33,305 nt of DNA from Holophagae bacterium (lineage in GTDB: Bacteria > Acidobacteriota > Thermoanaerobaculia > Thermoanaerobaculales > Thermoanaerobaculaceae), in contig JAAYVZ010000155.1 of assembly GCA_012516935.1 (NCBI GenBank), forward strand, positions 1 through 33,305, given 5' to 3'. A model generated the notes under the pieces. The model was not told the origin of the DNA and ran no database searches. It worked only from the letters and a program-made list of their open reading frames with translations. The translations under genes and the position numbers were made by a program. The stretch's first letter is position 1, and the number at the start of each line of letters is the position of its first letter. Shown one piece after another: positions 7,103 through 28,717 of this stretch.

Positions 7103-7323
7103 GAAGTCGATCGTTCTCCCGCTCGCCCGGTCGGCAGTCGCGATGCGGGGCGGGTGGCGGATCCATCCACGACCAGGCCCGGGTTCAGTTGGGGGGAGGG
7201 GCGGAGGTAGCGGGCGCGTGGTCTTGCGTCTCCTCCAGGGCCAGCGAACCCGGCCCGCGGTGGTGTCGTACACTCACGCCGTGCGCCGGCTGCGCGGCCG
7301 AGACGCGCGAAAGGGGGGAGACG

Positions 7324-8658
7324 GTGCGGAAGCTGCTGATTTCCGTAGCTGCTGTGGCGGTGTTGGGGACGTGGGGGTGCACGCGGGCACCAGCGACACC
7401 GGAGCAGGTCGAGGCGGCGTACAAAGTGGCCCAGGAGGCGTGGGATGCGGCCCCGACTCCAGAAACGAAGATCACGATTGCAAAGGAGTTCCTGGCCAAA
7501 CACCCGGACACCAAGTACACCGTGCGGGTGGTCCGTGAGGCCATGAACGTGCTCTCCGAGGAGCTCGGAAAGCCCGGCGAGGCGGAGACGTTGGTGCGGG
7601 CGGTCCGGGCGAAGGTCAAGGACCCGGTGACCCGGCGCCGGCTCGGAGTGGCACACGTCGGGGCCCTGGCAACGCTCAAGAACGGAGCACAGCTCGCCCA
7701 GGTCGCCGCGACGCTGGGCGCTGACCCCGGGCTCGATTTTTACGACCAGGTGAGCATCGCAGAGGCGGCCATCGCTGTCGAAGCTTGGGATACGGCGCTG
7801 ACCTTCGCGACCGAGGCGGCCGGGATCGACGGCGAGAAGCTCAAGGCCATCAGCCCAGCGGGCCGGTACCCGACGCCGGCGGACCTCGAGCGTGCCGTCA
7901 ACAAGCGCAAGGCGTGGGCGCTGGCCGACAAGGGCTGGGCCGAGTTCAAGCTCGGTCGCACCGAGGACGCCCTCGAGACGTTCGAGGTCGCCTCGACGCT
8001 CGACTCCCGTCAGATCATGGGCAACTCCGAGACCTCGCTGCCGGTCTACCGGGGCCGCACGCTGCTCGCCGCCGGTAAGGCGGCCGAGGCGGTCGAGGTG
8101 CTGGTGGCGAGCGCGCTGTACGGGGACGAGAAAGACGCCCGGGCGGCGCTCGAGCAGGCGTGGAGGGCGCAGGGCGGGCAGGGGTCGTTCGACGACTACC
8201 TGTGGAGCGAGCGCCAACGGCGCGCGATCCCGGCCCCCGACTTCACGCTGCCCGACTACGAAGGCACGCCCCATCGGTTCGCCTCGCTGCGCGCTGCCGA
8301 GGTCACGCTCCTGACGTTCTGGTTCCCCACTTGAGGGAGCTGCCGCGTGGAGTTGCCACGCATCGAGGAGCTGTACCAGAAGTACCGCGACAAGGGGTTC
8401 GGAGTGGTGGCCGTCGAGGCGCTGCGCGACACCGAGAGAGCCAGGAAGTTCATCGCCGACAAGAAGCTCACGTTTGCCTTCTTGGAGAACGGTACGGGCG
8501 CGGACGAGGTCGTAGCCAGGGTGTACGGCGTCGGTGGGTTCCCCAGCTCGTTCCTGCTCGACTCAAACGGCAAGATCATCTTCTCGCACTATGGCTTCGA
8601 GGTCGGAGACGAAGAGAAGCTCGAAGCGGAGATCCGGAAGCTGATCGAGAAAGGATAA
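7324..8658 (+). CDS. Predicted selenoprotein: lipoprotein with TPR-like region and TlpA/thioredoxin domain (UxxC)
   Basis: The reading frame runs from GTG 7324 through an in-frame TGA at 8332-8334 to TAA at 8656-8658, giving 444 residues with selenocysteine at 337. The N-terminus is a hydrophobic signal ending in GTWGC, a somewhat atypical lipobox. Residues about 25-290 are helical and TPR-like. The rest is an AhpC/TlpA thioredoxin fold: PAPDFTLPDYEG, then LLTFWFPT-U-GSC-RVELPRIEELYQKY, then the cis-proline loop VGGFPSSFLLDSNGKI. In ordinary TlpA proteins this site reads FWxxWCxxCRxELP, so the TGA falls exactly on the first redox cysteine and the second is kept. A SECIS-like hairpin follows. 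Read as two genes, neither half makes sense: the second would start after the active site. Alternatives are a point mutation or a sequencing error (TGC or TGT to TGA). Confidence 0.8.
8335..8361 (+). promoter_or_regulatory. SECIS-like hairpin directly after the in-frame TGA
   Basis: Sixteen bases after the TGA a perfect 6-bp stem, GCGTGG (8345-8350) pairing with CCACGC (8356-8361), closes a 5-base loop AGTTG. The published bacterial SECIS consensus asks for a small apical loop 16-37 bases after UGA, at least 3 paired bases below it, and a G among the first two loop bases. All three are met, with G in the second loop position. Such an element binds SelB and recruits Sec-tRNA. It lies within the coding sequence, as is normal in bacteria. 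Confidence 0.65.
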
Positions 8659-15957: not shown

Positions 15958-18066
15958 TCAGTGCTGTTTGGCCGGATCGGAGGCCGCGAGCTCCTCGATC
16001 AGTGCCTGGACCTCGAGGTTGAGCCCCTGGCGCCGGAACAGCACGGCATGGAGCTGTCTTTGTAACCCTTCGCCCTCGGCCCTCACTGCGTCGAGCCGAT
16101 CCGACTCGACGGGTGCCGTCTGAGCCGGCGGGTTGATCCCCATCTCGATGAGGCGGAACGCCATCATCAGCACCCCACGCCACAGTGTGTCAGGAACGGC
16201 ATGCGGGCGGTCTGGAACACGATCGATCTGCCGATAGAAAAGGTTGCTCTTGGTGAGCAGGTTGGGATGGGCGGCAAGTGCGGCGCTGAGGGCCGACTCG
16301 ACCAGGAACGACCCGCTGCGCACCGGTACCGGGGCGGCGGCTGTGGCGCGCCGCACGGTTCCGGCTACGACCTCTGCCACCGCCGACAGATCCTGGGTGT
16401 CGTTGACCATCAGCAGGCGGAGAAAGATCACCCCGAGAGAGAACGCATCGTCGCCATCGGTGAACCGAGGATACACGCGGTAGCGCACGAGCGGCAGGTG
16501 TAGACCGCCGCTGCGGGCGATTCGGCGTGCTGCAGCGGGCGCCAGAACGACTGGTTCAGAGGTGACCCGGATCTCACCCCCGGGGCCGCTGCCGAGCCGA
16601 GGGTCGAGGCGCACCACGAGCGAGGCGACGCCCAGCTCCTCCGCCCCGTCCGGGATCGCGAGCAGGAGCCAGTCGTGGGTGGATGGGCGCAGGTGCAGCC
16701 CGTGAGGGTCACGCAGGGTGGCCTCGATCCGGTAGCGGCCCGAGCCGTCGCTCTCGGCTGACACTCGCTCAATCAGCAGCTCCGCACGCCGGCGCGCCTG
16801 GGCGCTGAACTCCCGGACGCGCGGCGCGGCAAACGGAACCTTCATCTCCCGGGGCGGAAGCAGGACCGAGGCCCCGCTTCCCAGTGCCACCTCTCGGGTA
16901 CCCGAGGTGCCGAGGAGGCGGGTTCTGAAGCTCCAGAGCGCTGGCAGGAGCTCGCCCGGACGGCCCGGATCGACCACCAGGTGATCGGGATGGAGGTCGA
17001 GGTGGGGCAGGCGCAGCCGCAGGTGGTACTCTCGGACGCAACCGAGGATCTGCAGGAACAGGCTGAGCTTGAGGGTCAGGATCTCGACCGCGTCCAGACC
17101 GGACCCTGCATCGCCGAAGATGAACCCTCCCGCGTCAGGCAAGCCCGGAATCGCGGTGTCGGGCCGGCCGCCCAACCGATCGGCAAACGCCTCGAGCGAG
17201 GCCGGTACCAAGCGTGTCACGATGTAGGGGCTTTCGGTCGACGAGAAAAGGTTCCACAGAGGCTGCGAGGCGGCGCCTTTGGCCCGCCTGCGGCCCGTGG
17301 CTTCGCCACCTGGCGCCCCGCCGAGGCAGGTGGCGCTCATGGCGCAGCGCAGGCACGGCGGGGCCGGCCCCTCGTGCCCGGTTCCGGAGGCAAAACGTGT
17401 CGCTGCCTCCGCCCAGGCGCGCTGCAAGTCTTCGAAGCTCCCGGCCACCTCACCCGAGGTGGCCTCGACCGGCGGCGAAACGGCCCAGAGACGAGTCTCG
17501 CGGCCTTCCTGCCGGCACTGCGGGCAGGACAGGTAGCGCTGCTCTGTACCCGCGGAAAGAGGTAGGCCGGCGGCTGCGGGAGCGGTGCCGGCGCGGTAGC
17601 TCCTGAGCGGCCCCAGACAGGTCGGACAGAATACGGCAAAAAGACGCCGCAGGAGGGTGCAGAACAGCAGGGGCGGAACGGTCGGAAGTGGAGAACAGTC
17701 CGGCGCCGGGAGGAGCAGCTCGGGGAAGCAGGAGGTGTCGCCCTGCAGCAGGGCGAGATCGGCGAGCGTGCGGACCCACCACTCGTCCCGGGAGGCGTCG
17801 AGGCCTTCCAGCTCATCCTCGGGGAAGAACCCTTCCGCAGCCTCCTCCTGTCGCAGCTTGACCACGACTGGGGTGATCACGCTCCCGGAGGCGGACACGA
17901 GTGCCCCGCGCAGGCAGCGGGTTCGCGGTGAGTCGCCGATCAGCCTCACGAAGGCGATCAATGGTGAGTCGGTCACCTCCTCCTCGAGCTCGAGGTATAT
18001 GCCGAGGTCGTTGGGGTCGAGTGGTAGGAACGGGACGAAGCGGGACGGTGGCTTGTCTGAGCTCAT
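15958..18066 (-). CDS. Kinase-like (probable pseudokinase) protein with inserted zinc ribbon, T6SS-linked
   Basis: The 702-residue product from ATG 18066 has no family I can name, but its order of motifs is that of a protein kinase. VVVKL (K70) resembles the ATP-binding lysine strand. YIVTRLVPASLEAFADRL (281-298) resembles the hinge. REYHLRLRLPHLDLHPDHLVV (345-365) contains an HxDLxPx(N/H) catalytic loop with D357 kept. The metal-binding DFG is replaced by WSF (378-380), and DDAFSLGVIFLRLL resembles subdomain IX. Between the lobes lies a zinc-ribbon-like insert with C147-x2-C150 and C181-x2-C184, and a further cysteine cluster near 238-247. No signal peptide is seen. It begins 7 bases after the stop of the TssB-TssC fusion gene, so both form one unit divergent from the T6SS core. 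A regulatory or scaffold role is inferred. Confidence 0.6.
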   Translation of the reverse strand: MSSDKPPSRFVPFLPLDPNDLGIYLELEEEVTDSPLIAFVRLIGDSPRTRCLRGALVSASGSVITPVVVKLRQEEAAEGFFPEDELEGLDASRDEWWVRTLADLALLQGDTSCFPELLLPAPDCSPLPTVPPLLFCTLLRRLFAVFCPTCLGPLRSYRAGTAPAAAGLPLSAGTEQRYLSCPQCRQEGRETRLWAVSPPVEATSGEVAGSFEDLQRAWAEAATRFASGTGHEGPAPPCLRCAMSATCLGGAPGGEATGRRRAKGAASQPLWNLFSSTESPYIVTRLVPASLEAFADRLGGRPDTAIPGLPDAGGFIFGDAGSGLDAVEILTLKLSLFLQILGCVREYHLRLRLPHLDLHPDHLVVDPGRPGELLPALWSFRTRLLGTSGTREVALGSGASVLLPPREMKVPFAAPRVREFSAQARRRAELLIERVSAESDGSGRYRIEATLRDPHGLHLRPSTHDWLLLAIPDGAEELGVASLVVRLDPRLGSGPGGEIRVTSEPVVLAPAAARRIARSGGLHLPLVRYRVYPRFTDGDDAFSLGVIFLRLLMVNDTQDLSAVAEVVAGTVRRATAAAPVPVRSGSFLVESALSAALAAHPNLLTKSNLFYRQIDRVPDRPHAVPDTLWRGVLMMAFRLIEMGINPPAQTAPVESDRLDAVRAEGEGLQRQLHAVLFRRQGLNLEVQALIEELAASDPAKQH

Positions 18067-18073
18067 GGCGACT

Positions 18074-19858
18074 CTACCTGATTGCTTGGGTTCCGAGAAC
18101 GAGGTCCACGCTGCCGCCGTAGATCGTGAAGGCTGGCCGTAGCCGCACCGAGATGTCCCACAGATGTGGCGCATTGAGAGCCGGCGCTACCTCGACCTCG
18201 ACCTCTGCGGCCAGGGGGTGAGGCTCGGCCGTGGCCAAAAAGCCGAGGAGCTGGCCGTGAACGTGGTCTTTGACGCCCTCCTCGTCAGCATGGGCAGGGC
18301 AGGCGCGCGCCGCCGCCTGGAGAGCCTTGGCGGCGACCGACGCGAAGAGCTGGTAGGGCAGGGTCGCGGACCGGAAGCTTGCCGCTGTCGCCTCGGCGGT
18401 GTCGTAACGGGCCACAGCGTGCACTGAAGGCGTTGACAGAAAGTAGGCTCGGTCGGTACCCGGGACACCCAGCAGCGGCGCAAAGCCGCTGTCGACGAGC
18501 TCGAGCGCTTTCTGGTCACTGAGCAGAGCCTCGACCGCCGCCTCGGTCGGCTCGCCTTTGCCAACCCGAGCCGTGCGAGTGGCCAAGCCGGAGAGGAGCG
18601 CCGGACCCTCAGCGCCAGCCATCGGGAATCGCGGTCCCTCGGCCAGGTACCCTTGGGCCACGGCCGCAGCCAACGCCCAGACGCCTGACCCAAAAAGAGG
18701 GCGGTTGGCAGCACCGGCGGCGGCGGCATCCCAGGCGAACCCTGCCACAGCAGCGCCAGGCTCACCCCACGCTGACCGCAGCAGCACCCGGTTGAAAGCG
18801 AGGGCCAGCCAGAGCGAGCTCTCGTCGGCACGCAGGCGGTTCCACTTGGCGTACTCAGGCCCGCGCGATTTCCGCCCCAGGTCGGGCATGGTGGCCACGA
18901 GGGAGAGCTGCTTGACACCGAAGAACTCAGGGCCAACCTCAGCAATGAACGGGACACCGAGGCTCGAGGCGAGACGCGCTGCGTGGTGCAGGCTCTCCGT
19001 GTCGCGTGGCGAGCGGTCGAAGGCATAACCGAGGACGACGAGGCCAAGCGGTGGGTCGACCTCGCCAGCGTGCTCGGCCTCGAAATGCGTGTCGTAGAAG
19101 GAGTCGAGGTAGTCGTCCTTGGAGGCCGGTTGAGCGTGAACCTGGACCGGTCCGCCAGGTTGCACCCGCGCCAGCAGCAGCTCGAGGCCGCGCCAGGCGG
19201 CCTCGAGCTCCCGCAAAGCCGGCGCATCGGCGAACGTCGCAAGCTGTAAGGTGAGCCGGTAGTCGACGGCGGCGAGTGCCGCCGCCACCGCCGGCCCGCT
19301 GCCAGCAGCCGCGGCGGCTCCCAGCGCCGTTTCCAGCGCTAGCGAGGACGTCGCCTGCACCGTCGGGACCTGCACCATGCCGAGCAGCGAGTCGACAGCG
19401 GAGGCGCCGGAGGGTGAGGCCGTCGTGGCGGCTGCCGGGCGCTCGCGTACCAGCGAGGCGAGCTCGCTGTCTCCGGCAGCCACGAGCAGACGCTCGGCGA
19501 GCTGGCCCGCTCCCGTCCGGCCGTCAGCACCATCGGCGAGTGCCTCTCGGATGCGAAGCAGGGTCGAGGTCAGGGCGTGGCCGCGGGCCAAACGCTCGGG
19601 GGCGAAGTCGGCGAGCCGGCGAAACGCGAGCGTGCAAGCCAGCTCGGGGGCGCCGACGCCGAGGCGGTTGGGCACCCGGAGTCGCACGGTGGGCTCGAGC
19701 GCAGCCATCAGCGATTCGAGGCCGTCAAGCTCCACCCAGCGGGGGGCCTCGGCCCGCCCGCCCGCGAAGTCGGAAAGCACCAGCAGGCGCAGAACGGGGG
19801 CAGGGTGCGAGCCGAAGGTCGAGGTGACTGCCGAGGTCGTGGCGGTGTCGGAGCTCAT
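18074..19858 (-). CDS. TssB-TssC fusion paralogue (T6SS sheath-like protein)
   Basis: The 594-residue protein joins both sheath subunits in one chain. Residues about 20-135 are TssB-like: LRLLVLSDFAGG, VRLRVPNRLG, then LAFRRLADFAPERLARGHAL. From about 175 it is TssC-like: LRELEAAWRGLELLLARV, a SKDDYLDSFYD segment, GVPFIAEVGPEFFGVKQL, EYAKWNRLRADESSLWLAL, and LVDSGFAPLLGVPGTDRAYFLSTPSV. The same landmarks occur in the separate tssB and tssC genes across the promoter gap. Alanine-rich linker sequence (about 140-195) joins the halves. AGGAGGGG precedes ATG 19858 at a good distance. Canonical T6SS sheaths are made of separate TssB and TssC, so this is an unusual second sheath-like protein. It may cap, nucleate or vary the sheath, which is speculation. 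Confidence 0.85.
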   Translation of the reverse strand: MSSDTATTSAVTSTFGSHPAPVLRLLVLSDFAGGRAEAPRWVELDGLESLMAALEPTVRLRVPNRLGVGAPELACTLAFRRLADFAPERLARGHALTSTLLRIREALADGADGRTGAGQLAERLLVAAGDSELASLVRERPAAATTASPSGASAVDSLLGMVQVPTVQATSSLALETALGAAAAAGSGPAVAAALAAVDYRLTLQLATFADAPALRELEAAWRGLELLLARVQPGGPVQVHAQPASKDDYLDSFYDTHFEAEHAGEVDPPLGLVVLGYAFDRSPRDTESLHHAARLASSLGVPFIAEVGPEFFGVKQLSLVATMPDLGRKSRGPEYAKWNRLRADESSLWLALAFNRVLLRSAWGEPGAAVAGFAWDAAAAGAANRPLFGSGVWALAAAVAQGYLAEGPRFPMAGAEGPALLSGLATRTARVGKGEPTEAAVEALLSDQKALELVDSGFAPLLGVPGTDRAYFLSTPSVHAVARYDTAEATAASFRSATLPYQLFASVAAKALQAAARACPAHADEEGVKDHVHGQLLGFLATAEPHPLAAEVEVEVAPALNAPHLWDISVRLRPAFTIYGGSVDLVLGTQAIR

Positions 19859-20144: not shown

Positions 20145-20681
20145 ATGACGCGTGACCGTAGCTTCCAGAAGGAGATCCCGCCGTCGCGGGTCAACATCCG
20201 GTACGTCAAGTACACCGGCGGTGCTCAGGAGCAGGTCGAGCTGCCCCTCAAGCTCCTGCTGCTCGGGGACTACACCGGCAGGGCCGACGCCACACCGCTC
20301 GAGGAGCGCCAGAAAATCAGTGTCAATAAGGACAACTTCGAGGCCGTGATGAGGGAGCAGAACCTGCGGCTATCGATGGTCGTCCCGAACCGGCTCTCCG
20401 GGGTGGAAGGCGACGAGATGTCCGTGAACTTGGCCCTCGAGTCGTTGGACTCTTTCAACCCAGACGATATCGTGAGGCAGGTTCCGGAGCTCACGAAAAT
20501 GCTGGAGATCCGCGACTTGCTCGTGGACCTCAAGGCTCGCGTCATCACCAACAAGCGGTTCCGTCAGGCGTTGGAGCGGATCGTCAAGGACCCGTCGCAG
20601 ATCGAGACGATCATGCGGGAGCTGGACCGCGTGGCTCCTCTTCCGGAGGGCGCCGCTAAGCTGCCTGAGGGGCAGGCGTGA
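20145..20681 (+). CDS. tssB: T6SS contractile sheath small subunit TssB
   Basis: TssB (VipA) pairs with TssC to build the contractile sheath around the Hcp tube. The 178-residue length is normal. Landmarks are FQKEIPPSRVNIRYVKYTGG, LPLKLLLLGDYTGR, LRLSMVVPNRLSG and LESLDSFNPDDIVRQVPEL, all family-typical. AAAGGAG lies upstream of ATG 20145. It heads the plus-strand operon tssB-tssC-hcp-tssE-tssF-tssG-tssH, about 160 bases downstream of a good promoter. An internal paralogue of this domain forms the front half of the divergent fusion gene. Confidence 0.95.
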   Translation: MTRDRSFQKEIPPSRVNIRYVKYTGGAQEQVELPLKLLLLGDYTGRADATPLEERQKISVNKDNFEAVMREQNLRLSMVVPNRLSGVEGDEMSVNLALESLDSFNPDDIVRQVPELTKMLEIRDLLVDLKARVITNKRFRQALERIVKDPSQIETIMRELDRVAPLPEGAAKLPEGQA

Positions 20682-20708
20682 ACGCGCGCTGCATGAGGGG
20701 GTGAGAGC

Positions 20709-22199
20709 ATGGCAAAAGAGCAAGCCAGCACCAAACCGCAAGCCGTGACGGTCGAAGAACGGGGGGTGCTCGACGGTCTGTTCGAGATGGTGGACATGGC
20801 GGCACCGGCGGCAGGTGAGGCAACCACGCCGGCTGGGAGGCTTTCCCAGGCGCTCAACATGCTCATCCGTGAGGTGGCGCTCAGCGGCCGCACGGTGGAG
20901 CACGTGGACAAAGCCCTGGTGGATAGCCTCATTGCTAGCCTCGACCAGAGAATCTCCGCCCAGGTCAACGAGATCCTGCACAACCCCGATTTCCAGCGCC
21001 TGGAGTCGGCCTGGCGGGGCCTGAAGTTCCTCATCGACCGGACCGACTTCCGGCGCAACGTGCGAATCGAGGTCCTCAACGTCTCGAAAGACGACCTGCG
21101 ATCCGACTTCGAGGACGTCCCCGAGCCGATCCAATCGGGACTGTTCAAGCACATCTACGTGCAGGAATATGACCAACCCGGCGGCGAGCCGATCGCGGCT
21201 ATCATCGGCAACTACGAGTTTTCGAACCATCCTCAGGATATTGCGTTGCTCGGCAACATGTCCAAGATCGCCGCGGCCTGCCACGCCCCTTTCATCGGCG
21301 CTGTCGGGTCCGAGTTCTTCGGTCTGCGTTCGGTCGACGAGCTGCCTCGGCTTCCCGATGTGGCGCCGATCTTCGAGCAGGCGGAGTACGCCAAGTGGCG
21401 GGCGTTCCGCGACAGCGAGGACTCCCGCTACGTGGGTCTGACGTTCCCCCGGTTCTTGCTGCGCCTGCCGTACGGAACGGAGACGATACCCACCCGCACT
21501 TTCCACTACGAGGAAGACGTCACGGGCAGCCACGGTAACTACCTATGGGGCAACGCGAGCTTCGCCTTTGCCTCGACCTTGGCGCGCTCGTTCGCCGACC
21601 ACGGTTGGTGCGTGAACATCCGTGGGCCACAGTCGGGTGGATTGGTGGAGGATCTGCCGCTGCATTTCTACGAGGCCGCCGGCGAGACCACGGTGAAGAT
21701 CCCGACCGAGGTGCTGATCTCGGACCGTCGCGAGTTCGAGCTTTCGGAGCTCGGGTTCATTCCGTTCTCGTTTTACAAGAACAAGGATTTCGCCTGCTTT
21801 TTTTCGGCCAACTCGGTGCAGAAACCGAAGAAATACCTCAACGCGGATGCCACGGCGAACAGCCGGTTGTCCGCCCGGCTGCCCTATCTCTTCCTTGTCA
21901 GCCGGCTCGCGCACTATCTGAAGGTCATCCAGCGCGAGAACATCGGTGCGGCCAAGGAGAGGGACGAGCTGCAAAGGGAGCTCGAGACCTGGATCAAGAC
22001 CCTGGTGACGGACATGAAGGACCCAGGTCCTGAGCTCAAGGCTCGTTGTCCACTCTCGGCGGCCAGGATCGCGGTCACGGATATCGCTGACAACCCGGGG
22101 TTTTACAACGTTGAGATGATGGTGCGACCACACTTCCAGATCGAGGGCGTGGACGTCAGCCTGTCGCTGGTGTCCCGTCTTCCGAAGGCCAAGAAGTGA
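20709..22199 (+). CDS. tssC: T6SS contractile sheath large subunit TssC
   Basis: TssC (VipB) is the larger sheath subunit, and it carries the part recognised by ClpV after contraction in concert with TssB. The 496-residue length is typical. Landmarks are ILHNPDFQRLESAWRGLKFLIDRTDF, LNVSKDDLRSDFED, QPGGEPIAAIIGNYEF, CHAPFIGAVGSEFFGL, EYAKWRAFRDSEDSRYVGLTFPRFLLR, and the C-terminal VSRLAHYLKVIQRENIG. AGGGGGTGAGAG precedes ATG 20709, 27 bases after tssB. It is complete and looks functional. Confidence 0.97.
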   Translation: MAKEQASTKPQAVTVEERGVLDGLFEMVDMAAPAAGEATTPAGRLSQALNMLIREVALSGRTVEHVDKALVDSLIASLDQRISAQVNEILHNPDFQRLESAWRGLKFLIDRTDFRRNVRIEVLNVSKDDLRSDFEDVPEPIQSGLFKHIYVQEYDQPGGEPIAAIIGNYEFSNHPQDIALLGNMSKIAAACHAPFIGAVGSEFFGLRSVDELPRLPDVAPIFEQAEYAKWRAFRDSEDSRYVGLTFPRFLLRLPYGTETIPTRTFHYEEDVTGSHGNYLWGNASFAFASTLARSFADHGWCVNIRGPQSGGLVEDLPLHFYEAAGETTVKIPTEVLISDRREFELSELGFIPFSFYKNKDFACFFSANSVQKPKKYLNADATANSRLSARLPYLFLVSRLAHYLKVIQRENIGAAKERDELQRELETWIKTLVTDMKDPGPELKARCPLSAARIAVTDIADNPGFYNVEMMVRPHFQIEGVDVSLSLVSRLPKAKK

Positions 22200-22285
22200 C
22201 GGAAGGAGGTGGGGAGATTACGCAGATTGGGCGGCCAGGGCGGCTCCCAGGGGTTTTGCAAGCGGCATAGAAAGGGGAGGACATC

Positions 22286-22756
22286 ATGCCACTGCCAGCA
22301 TACTTGGAGATCGGTGAAATCCCCGGATCCTGCAAGGTGCAGGGACGGGAAAACCACATGGAGATCTTGGGTTTCCGGCACGAGGTTTACATGCCGGTGG
22401 ACCGCAAGGACGGCAGCGCCTCGGGCACCAGGGTCCACAAGGATCTGATCGTCATCAAGAACTTCGACAAGGGCTCTCCGAAGCTTTACCAGTACCTCTG
22501 TAACGGCAAGATCATCGCCTCCGCCACCCTCAAGTGGTACGAGATCGACCCTTCCGGCCAGGAAAAGATGTACTTCACCCACAAGCTGGAGAACGCTCGG
22601 GTGACGGCGGTGCGGCCGTACATGCCCGACGTGGACAACCCTCATAACGAGCAGTACAAGCACATGGAAGAGGTCGCCTTCCGTTACGAAAAGATCACCT
22701 GGACTTTCTGCGACGGGAACGTCGAGTTCACCGACTCCTGGGTGGAAGGCCGCTAG
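22286..22756 (+). CDS. hcp: T6SS inner tube protein Hcp
   Basis: Hcp (TssD) hexamers stack into the tube that is propelled into target cells. The 156-residue protein begins MPLPAYLEIGEIPGSCKVQG and continues with HMEILGFRHEVYMPVD, KDLIVIKNFDKGSPKLYQYL and a C-terminal FRYEKITWTFCDGNVEFTDSW. These match the Hcp beta-barrel pattern, including the conserved YEKITWT-type strand near the end. AAAGGGGAGG precedes ATG 22286. The 86-base gap after tssC is the longest so far in the operon, which may allow separate expression, since Hcp is needed in large amounts. Confidence 0.93.
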   Translation: MPLPAYLEIGEIPGSCKVQGRENHMEILGFRHEVYMPVDRKDGSASGTRVHKDLIVIKNFDKGSPKLYQYLCNGKIIASATLKWYEIDPSGQEKMYFTHKLENARVTAVRPYMPDVDNPHNEQYKHMEEVAFRYEKITWTFCDGNVEFTDSWVEGR

Positions 22757-22885
22757 CCGTCGAGCAGTTGCCGGCATCTTTGCGGCGCGTCTGTGCTGGC
22801 GTCGCGCGCGGCGCGGCGCCAGGTTCGTCTTGTGACCGTGCTTGAGAGAACCGCACCGCGGTCCGGATGGGTGAGAGGAGGGGCC

Positions 22886-23317
22886 ATGCCCCAGCGTCGG
22901 GAGGAGCGGGGCTTTTTCGAGAGGATGCTCGGGCCCCTGCCGGGGGCTCCGCGAAGCCAGACGATCCGCTGGGTCGGCGACCCGGTGCGTGATCACCTCG
23001 CGCTTCTTCTCAACACCAGGCGCGGGGCGGTGCCGCACCTGGCGGACTACGGCCTGCCGGATGTCTCCGAGTTCTACACCGACTACCCGGGGTCGCTCGC
23101 GGAGCTACGGAAGCTGGTCGAGCAGCTCATCCGCACGTATGAGACGCGTTTGTCGAACGTACGGGTGCGGCTCGTCGAGTCCGATAGCTCCGAGTTCAGG
23201 GCCTCGTTTCTGATTTCCGGCGACCTCGAGTCCGGAGACGAGCCGGTGCGGGTCACGTACCGCACGACGATCAATAACTCGGGACGGGCGGCGCTCGATG
23301 CGGTTGGGCCAGAGTGA
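22886..23317 (+). CDS. tssE: T6SS baseplate subunit TssE (gp25-like)
   Basis: TssE resembles phage T4 gp25 and joins baseplate to sheath. From ATG 22886, with AGGAGG just before it, the product is 143 residues, as expected. The open frame extends to 22793 but without family similarity. Landmarks are GFFERMLGPLPG at the N-terminus, VRDHLALLLNTRRGAVPHLADYGLPDVSEF and a C-terminal FLISGDLESGDEPVRVTYRTTIN strand pair, all gp25-like. The gap to hcp is 129 bases with no recognised feature. Confidence 0.92.
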   Translation: MPQRREERGFFERMLGPLPGAPRSQTIRWVGDPVRDHLALLLNTRRGAVPHLADYGLPDVSEFYTDYPGSLAELRKLVEQLIRTYETRLSNVRVRLVESDSSEFRASFLISGDLESGDEPVRVTYRTTINNSGRAALDAVGPE

Positions 23318-23346
23318 CGGGGCGGCGATGAGCGGGGGGAGGTGGA

Positions 23347-25092
23347 ATGGCCGGTCCTGACCGTTATTACGAGGAGGAGCTGAACTACCTGCTGGAGGCG
23401 GGGCGCGAGTACGCGCGGCTGCACCCCGAGCGCGCGCGCTTCCTCAACCTGCCTGACCCCCGGGCTCGCGACCCGCACGTGGAACGGCTCGTCGAGTCGT
23501 TCGCGTTTCTTACCGGTCGGGTCCGCCAGCGTCTCGACGACGACTTCCCTGAGCTCACGCACGGGCTGCTCGACCTCATATTCCCGCACTACCTGAAGCC
23601 GATCCCCTCGCTCGCCCTGCTCGAGTTCCGCCCCATTCCGGGGATGCTGCGGGAGCGCCAGGTAATCCCGAAAGGTTTCCTGGTCGACTCCAAGCCTACC
23701 TCGGCCGGCGTCGCCTGCCGTTTCTCCACGACCTACCCGGTGGAGATCTACCCACTCGTGCTCGAAGCCGCTGGCATCCACACCGATGCCGCCGGCCAGC
23801 GCTCGATCCGCCTCACGCTGGGCGTGCTCGAGGGTGCGGACGCGTCGAAGGTCGACGTGGGCCGGCTCCGTGTCTGCATCTGCGGTGAGCCGGCGGAAGC
23901 GTTCGCCCTCTACCGCGTCATCCGGCAGACGCTGGAAAAGGTGGTGCTCCACTTCGGTCGCGACCGGCGGCGCGAGCTGCCGCCCTCGGTTCTCCGCCCG
24001 GTCGGGTTCGGCGAGGAGGATACGGTCCTGCAGTATCCGGCTGTGAGCTTCCCCGGGTACCGGTTGCTGTCGGAGTACTTCGCTTTTCCCGAGAAGTTCC
24101 TCTTTTTCGACCTCGTGAACCTCGGTGCGATCGAGCTCGACAAGGGCGCCAGAAGCTTCGACCTCGAGCTGCGGTTTTCGGCGCGCCTGCCCGACAAGCT
24201 GCGTCCCACCCGGGAGACGTTCCGGCTCTACGCCACGCCTATCGTCAACCTCTTTCCACGCGACGGCGAGCCGATTCTCGTCACCCAGCTCAAGACTCGT
24301 TACCGTGTGCTCGGGGATTACACCCACCCCGATGCGTACGAGGTGGTTTCGGTGGATACCGTCGAGGGCGTGCGCAGCAGTGATGGCGCACGGCAGGTTC
24401 ACCATCCTTTCTACTCGTTCGCCGCGCCGAGCCACGAGACACGGGACGAGGTCACGTTTTTTCACACGCATTCCGGACGCAGCCCATCAGGCGCTTGGGT
24501 GACGTATCTGTCGCTCGTCCACCCGACTCGCGGCCAGCTTCCGAGCGAGGAAACGCTATCGCTTCAGTTGACGTGCACCAACGGCCCGCTCTGTCGCGAG
24601 GTCGGGATCGAGGATATCAGGGTCGCGGCGGTCAAACGGCTGGATTTCGTGACGTTCCGCAACTTCACCCGGCCGACGGCACCGCTGTACCCACGGCTTG
24701 GTGAGGGCAGCGAGTGGCGCTTCGTCTCGCACCTCGCAATCAACTTCCAGTCGCTGGTTGCGCCCGGCGCGCTGTCGAACCTGCTGGCCCTGTACGACCC
24801 CGGAGGCCAGCAGGCGAACCAGCGCCGTATCGAGGCTATCCGTGCGGTGCGGGCGTTTCCCAGTGAGCGGGTGCTGGGAGGCGTGGCGGTGCGGGGGACG
24901 CGCTTGGAGGTGGAGCTGCACGAGGGTGGATTCGACGACGAGGGGGACTTGCTGCTTTTCGTCCAGGTGCTTTCGGAGTTCGTCTCGCTCTACGCCGAGA
25001 CCAACACGTTCGCCGAGCTGCAGGTGCTCCGGCGGCCATCAGGGGAGGTGCTGCGGTGCCCGCCGGTCCAGGGCAAGCAAGCGCTGCTCTGA
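23347..25092 (+). CDS. tssF: T6SS baseplate subunit TssF
   Basis: TssF forms the baseplate wedge with TssG, TssE and TssK. The 581-residue protein opens with the family signature RYYEEELNYLLEAGREYARLHPERARFL, followed by DPHVERLVESFAFLTGRVRQRLDDDFPELTHGLLDLIFPHYLKPIPS. The central region includes FHTHSGR and the C-terminus LLLFVQVLSEFVSLYAETNTFAELQV, also typical. ATG 23347 is preceded by GGGAGG. The stop overlaps the tssG start (TGATG), so the wedge subunits are translated together. Confidence 0.95.
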   Translation: MAGPDRYYEEELNYLLEAGREYARLHPERARFLNLPDPRARDPHVERLVESFAFLTGRVRQRLDDDFPELTHGLLDLIFPHYLKPIPSLALLEFRPIPGMLRERQVIPKGFLVDSKPTSAGVACRFSTTYPVEIYPLVLEAAGIHTDAAGQRSIRLTLGVLEGADASKVDVGRLRVCICGEPAEAFALYRVIRQTLEKVVLHFGRDRRRELPPSVLRPVGFGEEDTVLQYPAVSFPGYRLLSEYFAFPEKFLFFDLVNLGAIELDKGARSFDLELRFSARLPDKLRPTRETFRLYATPIVNLFPRDGEPILVTQLKTRYRVLGDYTHPDAYEVVSVDTVEGVRSSDGARQVHHPFYSFAAPSHETRDEVTFFHTHSGRSPSGAWVTYLSLVHPTRGQLPSEETLSLQLTCTNGPLCREVGIEDIRVAAVKRLDFVTFRNFTRPTAPLYPRLGEGSEWRFVSHLAINFQSLVAPGALSNLLALYDPGGQQANQRRIEAIRAVRAFPSERVLGGVAVRGTRLEVELHEGGFDDEGDLLLFVQVLSEFVSLYAETNTFAELQVLRRPSGEVLRCPPVQGKQALL

Positions 25093-26117
25093 TGGCTCGG
25101 ATGAGCGTCACCGGGCACCAGTTCGACTTCTTTCAACTGGTGTACCTCCTGGAACGGTGGCTCGATCGGCGCGCACCGGTCGGCGGGCCAGGCCCGATCG
25201 ATGACGAGGGAGTTCGCTTTCGCCCCGATGCGTCCCTGGCGTTCTCACCTGCGGACGTGATGCGGGTCGAGAAGGCCGATGCCGACGAGCGAAGGCCGGG
25301 TTCAAGCTGGGACTACCGCGTGGTCGTGAGCTTCATGGGGCTGTATGGCGTGGCTGCGCCGTCACCGGTCTACTTCTCCGAGCTGATCGGCTTCGAGGAC
25401 GTGGATCCTGACCCGCTCGTGGACTTCCTCGATCTCTTCAACCACCGCCTGATTTCGTTGTACTACCGGGCCTGGCTGCGATACCGGTACCCCTACCGGT
25501 TCGAAGTGGGAGGCGCCGACCAGCTCTCCGGCTTTCTGCTGGCGTTCCTCGGGCTCTGTGATCCAGTGTCGCGCCAGGGCTTGGGTGTCGATGCGTTTCG
25601 ACTCCTCAAGTACATCGGCTTGCTCTCGCTGCGCAGCAAACCACCCGAGGCGCTCCAGAGGGTGCTGACCGACTACCTGGGCGGTTTTCCGGTGGCGGTC
25701 CGGGAGCTGGTGCTGCGGTGGGTGGATATCGAACCGGCCAACCGCAACCGGCTGGGGCTGGGGGCGAGCACGCTCGGGCGCGACCTGCTCGTCGGCACAC
25801 GTTTGCCCGACCGCATGGGCCGCGTGCGCGTCGTCGTTGGACCGCTCGGGCTCGACCAGTTCCTTAAGCTGCTTCCCGACCGCACCCTTTTCGGCGAGGT
25901 GTGCAGTCTCATCGAGCTGCAAACATTCAAACGCTTCGCGTACGACGTGGAGCTGCGGCTGCACGGGTCGGCAGTCCCGACCCTGCAGGTCGGCGGGCCG
26001 GCCGCGGTGCGGCTGGGCTGGACCTCGTTCCTGTGCAGTGCGCCGGGACGGGATGAGGATGGCGTCGTCTGGCTGCAGCCAGCGCGGCGATCGCAGAGCA
26101 GGGAGGTGCGCGCATGA
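25092..26117 (+). CDS. tssG: T6SS baseplate subunit TssG
   Basis: TssG is the second baseplate wedge protein. Starting at ATG 25092, which overlaps the tssF stop, it has 341 residues. Landmarks are HQFDFFQLVYLLERWL at the N-terminus, the VRFRPDASLAFSPADV strand, VSFMGLYGVAAPSPVYFSEL, DPLVDFLDLFNHRLISLYYRAWLRYRYPY and the GPLGLDQFLKLLPD motif near the C-terminus, all conserved in the family. The frame is open slightly upstream to 25056, which is only overlap with tssF. The end overlaps tssH by four bases (ATGA). Confidence 0.95.
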   Translation: MARMSVTGHQFDFFQLVYLLERWLDRRAPVGGPGPIDDEGVRFRPDASLAFSPADVMRVEKADADERRPGSSWDYRVVVSFMGLYGVAAPSPVYFSELIGFEDVDPDPLVDFLDLFNHRLISLYYRAWLRYRYPYRFEVGGADQLSGFLLAFLGLCDPVSRQGLGVDAFRLLKYIGLLSLRSKPPEALQRVLTDYLGGFPVAVRELVLRWVDIEPANRNRLGLGASTLGRDLLVGTRLPDRMGRVRVVVGPLGLDQFLKLLPDRTLFGEVCSLIELQTFKRFAYDVELRLHGSAVPTLQVGGPAAVRLGWTSFLCSAPGRDEDGVVWLQPARRSQSREVRA

Positions 26118-28717
26118 TCACCCGGGACGTTCGAGCATTGCTCGGCAAGGCAAACCCGTACATGGCACGGCAGCTCGAGGCAGCAGCCGGGTTCTGTATC
26201 GCCCGGACGCACTACGAGGTAACGCTCGAGCACCTGTTCTGCAAGCTGCTGGAGGACGGGCGCGGCGATCTGGTCAAAATCCTCCGCCACTTCGGAGTCG
26301 ACGCCGGGGCGCTCGAGAGCCGCTTGCTGGCGGCGGTCGAGCAGATGCGCTTCGGCAACACCGGGCGCCCGAGCTTCTCGCCCCTGCTGCTGGACGTCAT
26401 CGAGCAGGCGTATCTCATCGGTTCGCTCGAGTACGGCTACGAGCAGATCCGGTCCGGGACCGTGCTCGCCGCCGTGCTCGCATCGGCCGGGATGTCGCCG
26501 TTTCGGTCGTACCTCGACCTGCTCGAGCCGATCCGGCTGGAGGAGCTCAAGGGCTCGTTCGCGGAGATCGTCGCCGGTTCGGAGGAGGACCGTCCGGCGA
26601 CGGGGCGTTACGGCGCGCCGCGTCCCGAACGGGTGGCCCAGCCCGGGGCGAAAGCAGACAGCGCGCTCGCGCAGTTCTGCATCGATGTCACACAGCGGGT
26701 GCGTGAGGGGGCAATTGACCCGGTCCTCGGGCGCGATGAGGAGATCCGCCAAATGGTGGACATCCTCGTGCGGCGGCGCAAGAACAACCCGATCCTGGTG
26801 GGCGAGGCGGGGGTCGGCAAGACCGCGCTCGTCGAAGGCTTGGCGCTGCGCATCGTCGCCGACGATGTGCCGGGACCGCTCAAGGACACCCGGATCCTCA
26901 ATCTCGACCTTGGGCTGCTGCAGGCCGGGGCGGGCGTCAAGGGCGAGTTCGAGAACCGCCTCAAGTCGGTCATCGCCGAGATCAACGAGGCCAAAGCGGC
27001 AGGCGAGAAGATCATCACCTTCATCGACGAGGCGCACACCCTCATCGGTGCCGGCGGCCCGGCGGGGGGTGGCGACGCCGCCAACCTCCTCAAGCCAGCG
27101 CTGGCGCGCGGTGAGCTCCGCACCATAGCCGCTACCACGTGGTCCGAGTACAAGAAGTATTTCGAGAAAGATGCGGCCCTCGCACGCCGCTTCCAGCTCG
27201 TGAAGGTGGACGAGCCGGACGAAGTCCGGGCGATCACCATGCTCCGCGGCGTGCGGTCCAAGTTCGAACAGGCGCACAACGTGCGCATCCTCGATAGCGC
27301 TGTCGTAGCTGCGGTGCAGCTCTCGCAACGCTACATCTCCGGTCGGCAGCTTCCCGACAAGGGCGTGGACGTCATGGACACCGCGTCGTCACGCGTCAAG
27401 GTAGGCCTGGACGCGAAGCCAGCGGCGATGGACCGCCTCGAGCGGCGGATCATGTACGCCGAGATGGCGCTCGCCGCGCGCCGACGCGACGTCGAGGGTG
27501 GCACGTACAAGGACGACGGCGAGATCGAGCGTCTGGAGAGCAGCATCGCTGCGGCGCACGCGGAGCTCGCCGCCATCGCGCCGCTCTGGGAGCGCGAGAA
27601 GGCGGCGGTGAGCAAGGTCATGGCGGCGCGCTCCGAGAGCGGTAGCCCCGAGGAGCTGCAGGCGGCGCTCGCCGAGCTGGCGGAGGTGCAGGGCCCAAGC
27701 CCGCTCATTCCGCTGGAGGTGACGCCGGATGTGGTGGCCTCGGTGGTGGCCGATTGGACCGGCATCCCGGTCGGCAAAATGGTACGCGACCAGGCCGGGA
27801 TCGTGCTCGAGCTCGAGCAGCAGCTCGGCAAGCGCATCATCGGTCAGGATCACGCGCTGGCGGTCCTGGGCGAGCGCATCCGAGCCGCCCGCGCCGGGCT
27901 CGGTAACCCCAACGCCCCGCAGGGCGTCTTCCTCATGGTCGGCCCTTCGGGGGTCGGCAAAACCGAGACCGGCCTCGCGCTCGCCGACCTGCTGTACGGC
28001 GGGGAGCGCTTCCTGACCACCGTCAACATGTCGGAGTACCAGGAGGCGCACACCGTGTCGCGGCTCATCGGCTCCCCACCCGGGTACGTGGGTTATGGCG
28101 AGGGCGGCGTGCTCACCGAGGCGGTGCGCCAGCGGCCGTACTCCGTCGTGCTGCTCGACGAGGTCGAGAAATCGCACGCTGACGTCATGAACCTCTTCTA
28201 CCAGGTGTTCGACAAGGGCATGCTCTCCGACGGTGAGGGGCGGGAGATCGATTTCAAGAACACGGTCCTGATCCTGACCTCCAACCTCGCCTCCGACACC
28301 ATCATGGAGATGACGGCCGGCGGTGCCACCGCCGAGGACCTCATCGAGGGGATCCGACCGGTGCTGCGTGAGCGCTTCAAGCCGGCGCTGCTCGCCCGTA
28401 TGACGATCGTGCCGTTCTTTCCGATCAGCCCCGAGAACATGCGGCGGATCGTCGACCTCAAGCTCGCTAAGGTGGCCGAACGGCTGGCCGCGAACGCCCG
28501 GGTGACGCTCGAGACCACCCCGGCGCTCGCCGACTGGGTCGCCGAGCGCTGCACGGTGGAGGAGACCGGCGCCCGCAACGTCGACCAGGTCATCGCGGGA
28601 CAGATCCTGCCGCGCATCTCGACCGAGATCCTCTCCCGCATGGCGAAGGACGAGCCGGTGGGCACGGTCAAGGCGGACGTCGGCGAGGACGGCGCGCTGA
28701 CGATCACCTTCGCCTGA
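26114..28717 (+). CDS. tssH: T6SS AAA+ ATPase ClpV (TssH)
   Basis: ClpV disassembles the contracted sheath so that its subunits can be reused. The 867-residue chain has a Clp N-domain (about 1-150), then two AAA+ modules. Walker A motifs are GEAGVGKT (230-237) and GPSGVGKT (610-617), with Walker B IITFIDEAH and VVLLDEVEKSH. The middle region (about 400-530) is helical and rich in charged residues, as in ClpB and ClpV. The segment PRTERVAQPG-like between N-domain and first module is short. It starts in an ATGA overlap with tssG. The gene context identifies it as ClpV rather than ClpB. Confidence 0.95.
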   Translation: MITRDVRALLGKANPYMARQLEAAAGFCIARTHYEVTLEHLFCKLLEDGRGDLVKILRHFGVDAGALESRLLAAVEQMRFGNTGRPSFSPLLLDVIEQAYLIGSLEYGYEQIRSGTVLAAVLASAGMSPFRSYLDLLEPIRLEELKGSFAEIVAGSEEDRPATGRYGAPRPERVAQPGAKADSALAQFCIDVTQRVREGAIDPVLGRDEEIRQMVDILVRRRKNNPILVGEAGVGKTALVEGLALRIVADDVPGPLKDTRILNLDLGLLQAGAGVKGEFENRLKSVIAEINEAKAAGEKIITFIDEAHTLIGAGGPAGGGDAANLLKPALARGELRTIAATTWSEYKKYFEKDAALARRFQLVKVDEPDEVRAITMLRGVRSKFEQAHNVRILDSAVVAAVQLSQRYISGRQLPDKGVDVMDTASSRVKVGLDAKPAAMDRLERRIMYAEMALAARRRDVEGGTYKDDGEIERLESSIAAAHAELAAIAPLWEREKAAVSKVMAARSESGSPEELQAALAELAEVQGPSPLIPLEVTPDVVASVVADWTGIPVGKMVRDQAGIVLELEQQLGKRIIGQDHALAVLGERIRAARAGLGNPNAPQGVFLMVGPSGVGKTETGLALADLLYGGERFLTTVNMSEYQEAHTVSRLIGSPPGYVGYGEGGVLTEAVRQRPYSVVLLDEVEKSHADVMNLFYQVFDKGMLSDGEGREIDFKNTVLILTSNLASDTIMEMTAGGATAEDLIEGIRPVLRERFKPALLARMTIVPFFPISPENMRRIVDLKLAKVAERLAANARVTLETTPALADWVAERCTVEETGARNVDQVIAGQILPRISTEILSRMAKDEPVGTVKADVGEDGALTITFA

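What the first reader, a model, noticed from the sequence alone, without database searches (positions are those of the whole stretch)
7324..8658. Unannotated-type selenoprotein: TlpA-like lipoprotein with U-G-S-C in place of the CxxC redox motif
Two same-frame halves separated by one TGA join into a perfect TlpA domain. The TGA sits on the first redox cysteine (FWFPT-U-GSC-R against the usual FWxxWCxxCR), the resolving cysteine is kept, and the cis-proline loop follows at the normal distance. The downstream half shows no decay and would begin after the active site if it were a separate gene. Automatic annotation would call it a pseudogene or two proteins. The fusion of a long TPR-like lipoprotein region to a Sec-containing thioredoxin domain is unusual to my knowledge.
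Basis: partly seen in the sequence, partly recalled or inferred. Interest (0 to 1): 0.88.

Follow-up and report, generated by a model that had tools for sequence, protein, structure and literature searches.

The report
Selenocysteine TlpA-like lipoprotein with TPR domain
This Acidobacteriota gene reads an in-frame TGA as the rare amino acid selenocysteine in the active site of an exported redox protein; 22 relatives keep the same TGA and a matching RNA hairpin, so it is a real gene family that gene finders would split in two, although thioredoxin-type selenoproteins as such are already known.

Summary
Window 7324-8658 is one gene whose only internal stop is a TGA (8332-8334) at the first redox residue of a ResA/TlpA-type thioredoxin domain. 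The genome holds selA, selB, selC (tRNA-Sec) and selD, and selD itself has an in-frame TGA at its usual Sec position. I found 22 homologues from Acidobacteriota, mostly Thermoanaerobaculia. All carry TGA at the same codon and none carries Cys. An N-terminus-only search, blind to the active site, found 19 genomes and all 19 are TGA. A hairpin (8345-8361, 16 nt after the TGA) fits the published bacterial SECIS model. It pairs fully in all 23 members, with compensatory changes, and its codons are among the most synonymously constrained in the gene. Downstream dN/dS is low. AlphaFold2 gives a confident TPR-like solenoid joined to a thioredoxin fold (pLDDT 91.5). The likely role is a membrane-anchored extracytoplasmic disulfide reductase; substrate and donor are inferred. 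UxxC TlpA/redoxin selenoproteins are already catalogued, but no NCBIfam model covers this family at cut-off. Verdict: genuine, high confidence, a new member family of a known kind.

The parts
7324..8658 (+). selenoprotein gene, 444 residues with Sec337, stop TAA at 8656-8658
   Evidence: homologues
7313..7320 (+). possible Shine-Dalgarno sequence GGGGGGAG before the GTG start
   Evidence: read directly from the sequence; inference
7324..7380 (+). signal peptide with predicted lipidated Cys19 (7378-7380)
   Evidence: Cys invariant in aligned relatives, several with canonical lipobox; window box atypical at -2
7399..8223 (+). all-helical TPR-like solenoid, residues 26-300
   Evidence: AlphaFold2 model; weak TPR matches in some members; consensus TPR chains matched by the profile
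8230..8646 (+). ResA/TlpA-type thioredoxin domain, residues 303-441
   Evidence: Pfam Redoxin 2.1e-17 and AhpC-TSA 1.3e-16; 3gl3 and ResA structures
8332..8334 (+). in-frame TGA read as Sec337, position of the first redox Cys
   Evidence: TGA in 23 of 23 family members
8341..8343 (+). resolving Cys340
   Evidence: invariant
8345..8361 (+). SECIS hairpin: stem 8345-8350 with 8356-8361, loop AGTTG 8351-8355, 16 nt after the TGA
   Evidence: bSECIS rules in PMC13188914
8350..8352 (+). Glu343, at the position of the ResA active-site Glu80
   Evidence: invariant column; assignment by the spacing C-x-x-E; ResA E80Q structure 2h1b listed
8542..8544 (+). Pro407, predicted cis-proline
   Evidence: invariant column

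Best explanation
It is a bacterial selenoprotein. The ribosome starts at GTG 7324 and makes a lipoprotein signal and a TPR-like helical domain. At UGA 8332, SelB bound to the hairpin just downstream delivers Sec-tRNA, so Sec becomes the attacking residue (U337) of a U-x-x-C motif in a ResA/TlpA-type thioredoxin domain. After export and lipidation, the domain most likely reduces disulfides of extracytoplasmic client proteins. Sec attacks, Cys340 resolves, and a CcdA/DsbD-type membrane protein may reset it. The TPR-like domain probably binds the client or a partner. Gene structure and recoding signals are shown by sequence and comparison; Sec insertion follows from these plus the machinery; export, substrate, donor and the TPR role are inferred. 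The confidence given is for the selenoprotein identity; for the disulfide-reductase role alone it is about 0.6.
For: Machinery: tRNA-Sec 72 bits, UCA anticodon; selB 324.5 bits; selA 451 bits; selD with in-frame TGA in SCAG-U-ASK. Conservation: 23 of 23 TGA, no Cys; the N-terminus-only search of 149 genomes found 19, all TGA. SECIS: 100% of stem cells paired, 8 cells with compensatory changes against 1.3 in shuffles, 0 of 500 as high; stem-loop -10.7 kcal/mol, z -3.64; meets loop, G, stem, spacing and energy rules. Stem codons R-V-E-L-P-R show excess synonymous constraint, with rare TTG and CCA. dN well below dS after the TGA in all seven pairs. Fold. A DsbD_TM protein is encoded in the genome.
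Against: No protein-level proof. No conserved neighbours to point to a pathway. The window's own lipobox is atypical at -2. The TPR assignment rests mainly on the model; the window protein itself scores below Pfam TPR cut-offs. Folding the whole 33-45 nt stretch gives only a modest z-score (-1.1 to -1.4), so only the upper hairpin stands out.
Confidence: 0.9

Rival explanations
1. A pseudogene or sequencing error: a Cys or other codon mutated, or was misread, to TGA.
For: By table 11 the frame is interrupted, and MAG contigs can carry errors.
Against: The same TGA in 23 separate genomes, low dN/dS after it, and a conserved covarying hairpin.
Confidence: 0.01
2. Two proteins: a TPR-like lipoprotein ending at the TGA, and a small protein re-initiating at GTG 8347 just after it.
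For: GTG 8347 is preceded by a GAGGGAG stretch in the window.
Against: The GTG is not conserved: four relatives have GCG and L074 has GAG, and the purine stretch varies. The split would remove the core strand and active site from the thioredoxin fold.
Confidence: 0.02
3. The TGA is read as another amino acid, or by simple leaky readthrough, without selenium.
For: Nothing specific; the protein product has not been seen.
Against: Complete Sec machinery, a SECIS fitting the bacterial model, and a position that is Cys in ordinary TlpA proteins.
Confidence: 0.02
4. Still a selenoprotein, but the function differs: a copper-site or cytochrome c assembly factor, a peroxidase-like enzyme, or a redox sensor using the TPR-like domain, rather than a general disulfide reductase.
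For: Pfam's best matches are Redoxin and AhpC-TSA, some members weakly match SCO1, and the ResA-like Glu343 is invariant.
Against: Best solved relatives are ResA/DsbE-type proteins with CxxC at the place of UxxC, which fits disulfide reduction; none of these functions is tested.
Confidence: 0.3

Closest known systems
ResA/TlpA/DsbE thiol-disulfide oxidoreductases
   Same: Thioredoxin-like fold, CxxC-type site, Glu three residues after the second Cys, predicted cis-Pro, extracytoplasmic
   Different: Sec replaces the first Cys, Thr replaces the usual Trp before it (FPTU against ATWC), and a TPR-like lipoprotein domain of about 275 residues is fused in front
Catalogued UxxC thioredoxin-fold selenoproteins: 'Thiol-disulfide isomerase-like protein' (cd02966), 'Redoxin family protein' (PF08534), Prx-like thiol:disulfide oxidoreductase (PMC13188914 Table 1)
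   Same: Sec in a UxxC motif of a TlpA/redoxin domain
   Different: The catalogue table gives no TPR-fused lipoprotein subfamily, and the paper does not mention Acidobacteria or TPR; I could not compare with the table's representative sequences
NF041054 ResA-like WAxxUGC motif protein
   Same: ResA-like domain with Sec near the active site
   Different: 46.7 bits against a cut-off of 300; UGC rather than UxxC motif; different architecture
Other TPR-like Sec-TlpA proteins of Acidobacteriota (L064, L067, L096, L097, L105)
   Same: TPR-like N-terminus, UxxC TlpA domain and the same SECIS type
   Different: Different N-terminal lengths, ASW/ASF before U rather than FPT, and outside the 22-member clade in the tree

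Membership tests
bacterial selenoprotein | in-frame TGA at a redox position, conserved in homologues | tested here: met
   23 of 23
bacterial selenoprotein | SECIS: 3-9 nt loop, 4-16 bp stem, G in the first two loop positions, 16-37 nt from UGA, MFE at most -7.5 | tested here: met
   5 nt loop AGUUG, 6 bp, 16 nt, -10.7 kcal/mol; rules; covariation
bacterial selenoprotein | selA, selB, selC, selD in the genome | tested here: met
bacterial selenoprotein | Sec detected in the protein | not testable with these tools
   needs mass spectrometry or 75Se labelling
ResA/TlpA-like thioredoxin domain | thioredoxin-like fold matching ResA/DsbE | tested here: met
   3gl3 TMt 0.90, ResA 0.88; profile E 2.7e-29
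ResA/TlpA-like thioredoxin domain | CxxC with both Cys | tested here: not met
   first position is TGA/Sec in all members; UxxC
NCBIfam ResA subfamily NF002854 | score at or above the curated cut-off of 170 | tested here: not met
   70.3 bits
NF041054 WAxxUGC selenoprotein | score at or above the cut-off of 300 and a UGC motif | tested here: not met
   46.7 bits
UGSC-motif selenoprotein NF041046 | match to the model | tested here: not met
   no hit listed
TPR protein | TPR motifs above Pfam cut-off | tested here: inconclusive
   weak hits in up to 5 of 17 members, 13.6 bits in the window; helical solenoid in the model
lipoprotein | signal peptide with lipobox Cys | tested here: inconclusive
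   Cys invariant and canonical boxes in some relatives; window box atypical; no signal predictor available

The most novel reading that the evidence does not exclude
The family is obligately Sec: no Cys form was found in 22 relatives. The mRNA stretch coding CR(V/A)ELPR acts as a stereotyped Sec-SECIS module used by several divergent TPR-fused and other TlpA selenoproteins in Acidobacteriota, WOR-3 and Armatimonadota. TPR-fused Sec-TlpA lipoproteins may be a phylum-specific extracytoplasmic reducing system whose chemistry truly needs selenium.
Probability: 0.3. Interest if true: 0.55.

Novelty: new member of a known kind. Interest (0 to 1): 0.45.

Why it matters
It adds a well-supported selenoprotein family that standard gene finding would truncate before the active site or split in two. 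Because no Cys form was found, it is a good place to ask why some oxidoreductases keep Sec. The invariant hairpin inside the coding sequence gives a SECIS pattern specific enough to find more such genes: 10 of 396 genomes matched, against none for the reversed control pattern.

Tried and rejected
Conserved operon: proteins from the window's neighbours found no match beside the gene in relatives. Rfam on the window: no match, as expected for a short bacterial SECIS. tRNAs in the window: none. Presence of Sec machinery as a correlate of this gene is uninformative, because nearly all sampled relatives have selA and selB, with or without it; each of the 17 carriers in that set has at least one of the two. 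Pseudogene, two-gene and other-amino-acid readings were rejected for the reasons given under rivals. L074 is a distant relative, not placed with the main clade in the tree. Published accounts: no paper found joins Thermoanaerobaculia or TPR to such a selenoprotein, but the library is partial.

Full report
Observation. Window 7324-8658 translates as 444 residues with one internal TGA at 8332-8334, in FWFPT-U-GSCRVELPR, and ends at TAA. By the standard bacterial code it appears as two ORFs, 7189-8334 and 8347-8658. The residues after the TGA match the second half of Redoxin, AhpC-TSA and ResA-type models.

Genome. The window is contig 92 of a 3.7 Mb, 98% complete assembly. Named relatives are Thermoanaerobaculia and related Acidobacteriota MAGs. 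The genome has tRNA-Sec (72 bits, UCA), selB, selA (incomplete at a contig end) and selD. selD has its own in-frame TGA in SCAG-U-ASK, so a second selenoprotein uses the same decoding.

Homologues. Among 60 relatives, 16 besides the window carry a homologue spanning the site, each with TGA at this codon; a 17th, the same-genus genome, is cut by a contig start just after the site. In a phylum draw of 396 genomes the profile found 7 at 1e-40, all TGA. To avoid bias towards the active site I searched with the N-terminal domain alone in 149 genomes of the class. It found 19, and all 19 continue into TGA. In total 23 members have TGA and none has Cys. Twenty-two form one clade (100/98), separate from Cys TlpA proteins and from other Sec-TlpA proteins; L074 is distant.

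RNA element. After the TGA comes N6-TGCC-GCGTGG-AGTTG-CCACGC. The stem starts 10 nt after the TGA and the loop 16 nt after. It meets the published bacterial SECIS rules: 5 nt loop, G then U at loop positions 2 and 3, 6 bp stem, 16 nt spacing, -10.7 kcal/mol. In a 20-sequence alignment every stem cell pairs, and two positions show changes on both sides (C-G to U-A; U-A to C-G and A-U). Eight cells change on both sides against 1.3 expected, 0 of 500 shuffles as high, and slid structures fail. All 23 members pair 6 of 6. Codons 341-346 are among the most synonymously constrained in the gene: R346, V342, R341 and L344 rank in the top five of 172 columns, and the stem uses TTG and CCA, which make up only 11% and 10% of their amino acid's codons. 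This is selection on RNA, not only on protein.

Protein-level selection. In seven pairs of relatives dN is well below dS in residues 347-441 (for example 0.037 against 0.655), with a dN lower than that before the TGA. The downstream half is therefore translated and functional.

Structure. AlphaFold2 with the 17-member alignment gives mean pLDDT 91.5 and pTM 0.85: helices 26-300, then a thioredoxin fold. Foldseek's best hits are 3gl3 and ResA at TMt 0.8-0.9. U337, Cys340, Glu343 (ResA Glu80 position) and Pro407 are invariant. The N-terminal part resembles TPR: weak Pfam hits in some members and synthetic consensus TPR chains in a profile search.

Mechanism. Shown by sequence: recoding signals, conservation, domain fold. 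Inferred: export and lipid anchoring, from a conserved N-terminal Cys; nucleophilic attack by Sec and resolution by Cys340, from the established ResA/thioredoxin mechanism; reduction by a DsbD/CcdA-type membrane protein, one of which is encoded in the genome; client binding by the TPR-like domain. No neighbour conservation helps to name the client.

Comparison with the known. Thioredoxin-fold UxxC selenoproteins, including TlpA/redoxin kinds, are catalogued (PMC13188914; PMC2398784). No NCBIfam model reaches its cut-off for the window protein. The pattern TGA-N6-TGYCGYGYGGAGTTDCCNCRY hit 10 of 396 Acidobacteriota genomes and the reversed control none. Its additional hits, and those of the genome scan, include other Sec-TlpA proteins, some with TPR-like N-termini, in Acidobacteriota, and others in WOR-3 and Armatimonadota. 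So the family is a new, well-defined member of a known kind, and TPR-like fusion recurs in the phylum.

Verdict. The result is solid and useful but not surprising in kind.

Noticed in passing
window 18074-19858 (-): A 594-residue ORF matches both the T6SS small sheath protein (TssB/VipA, residues 23-110) and the large sheath protein (TssC/VipB, residues 194-480), next to separate tssB and tssC genes at 20145 and 20709; it may be a fused sheath paralogue.
   Followed up: no
window 20145-28717 (+): Type VI secretion cluster: tssB, tssC, hcp, tssE (gp25-like), tssF, tssG and a ClpV-like ATPase in an Acidobacteriota genome.
   Followed up: no
window 15958-18174 (-): 738-residue ORF with no Pfam match, beside the sheath-like fusion ORF.
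   Followed up: no
L059, L063, L066 (TGA) and L058 (TGC): WOR-3 TlpA proteins exist in Sec and Cys forms within one well-supported clade, the Sec forms with the same SECIS sequence; a natural Sec/Cys comparison set.
   Followed up: partly
L064, L067, L096, L097: Large Acidobacteriota proteins with TPR-like N-termini of about 500-660 residues joined to UxxC Sec-TlpA domains, outside the present family.
   Followed up: partly
L075 1531-1533: selD of the same genome is itself a selenoprotein gene (in-frame TGA in SCAG-U-ASK).
   Followed up: yes
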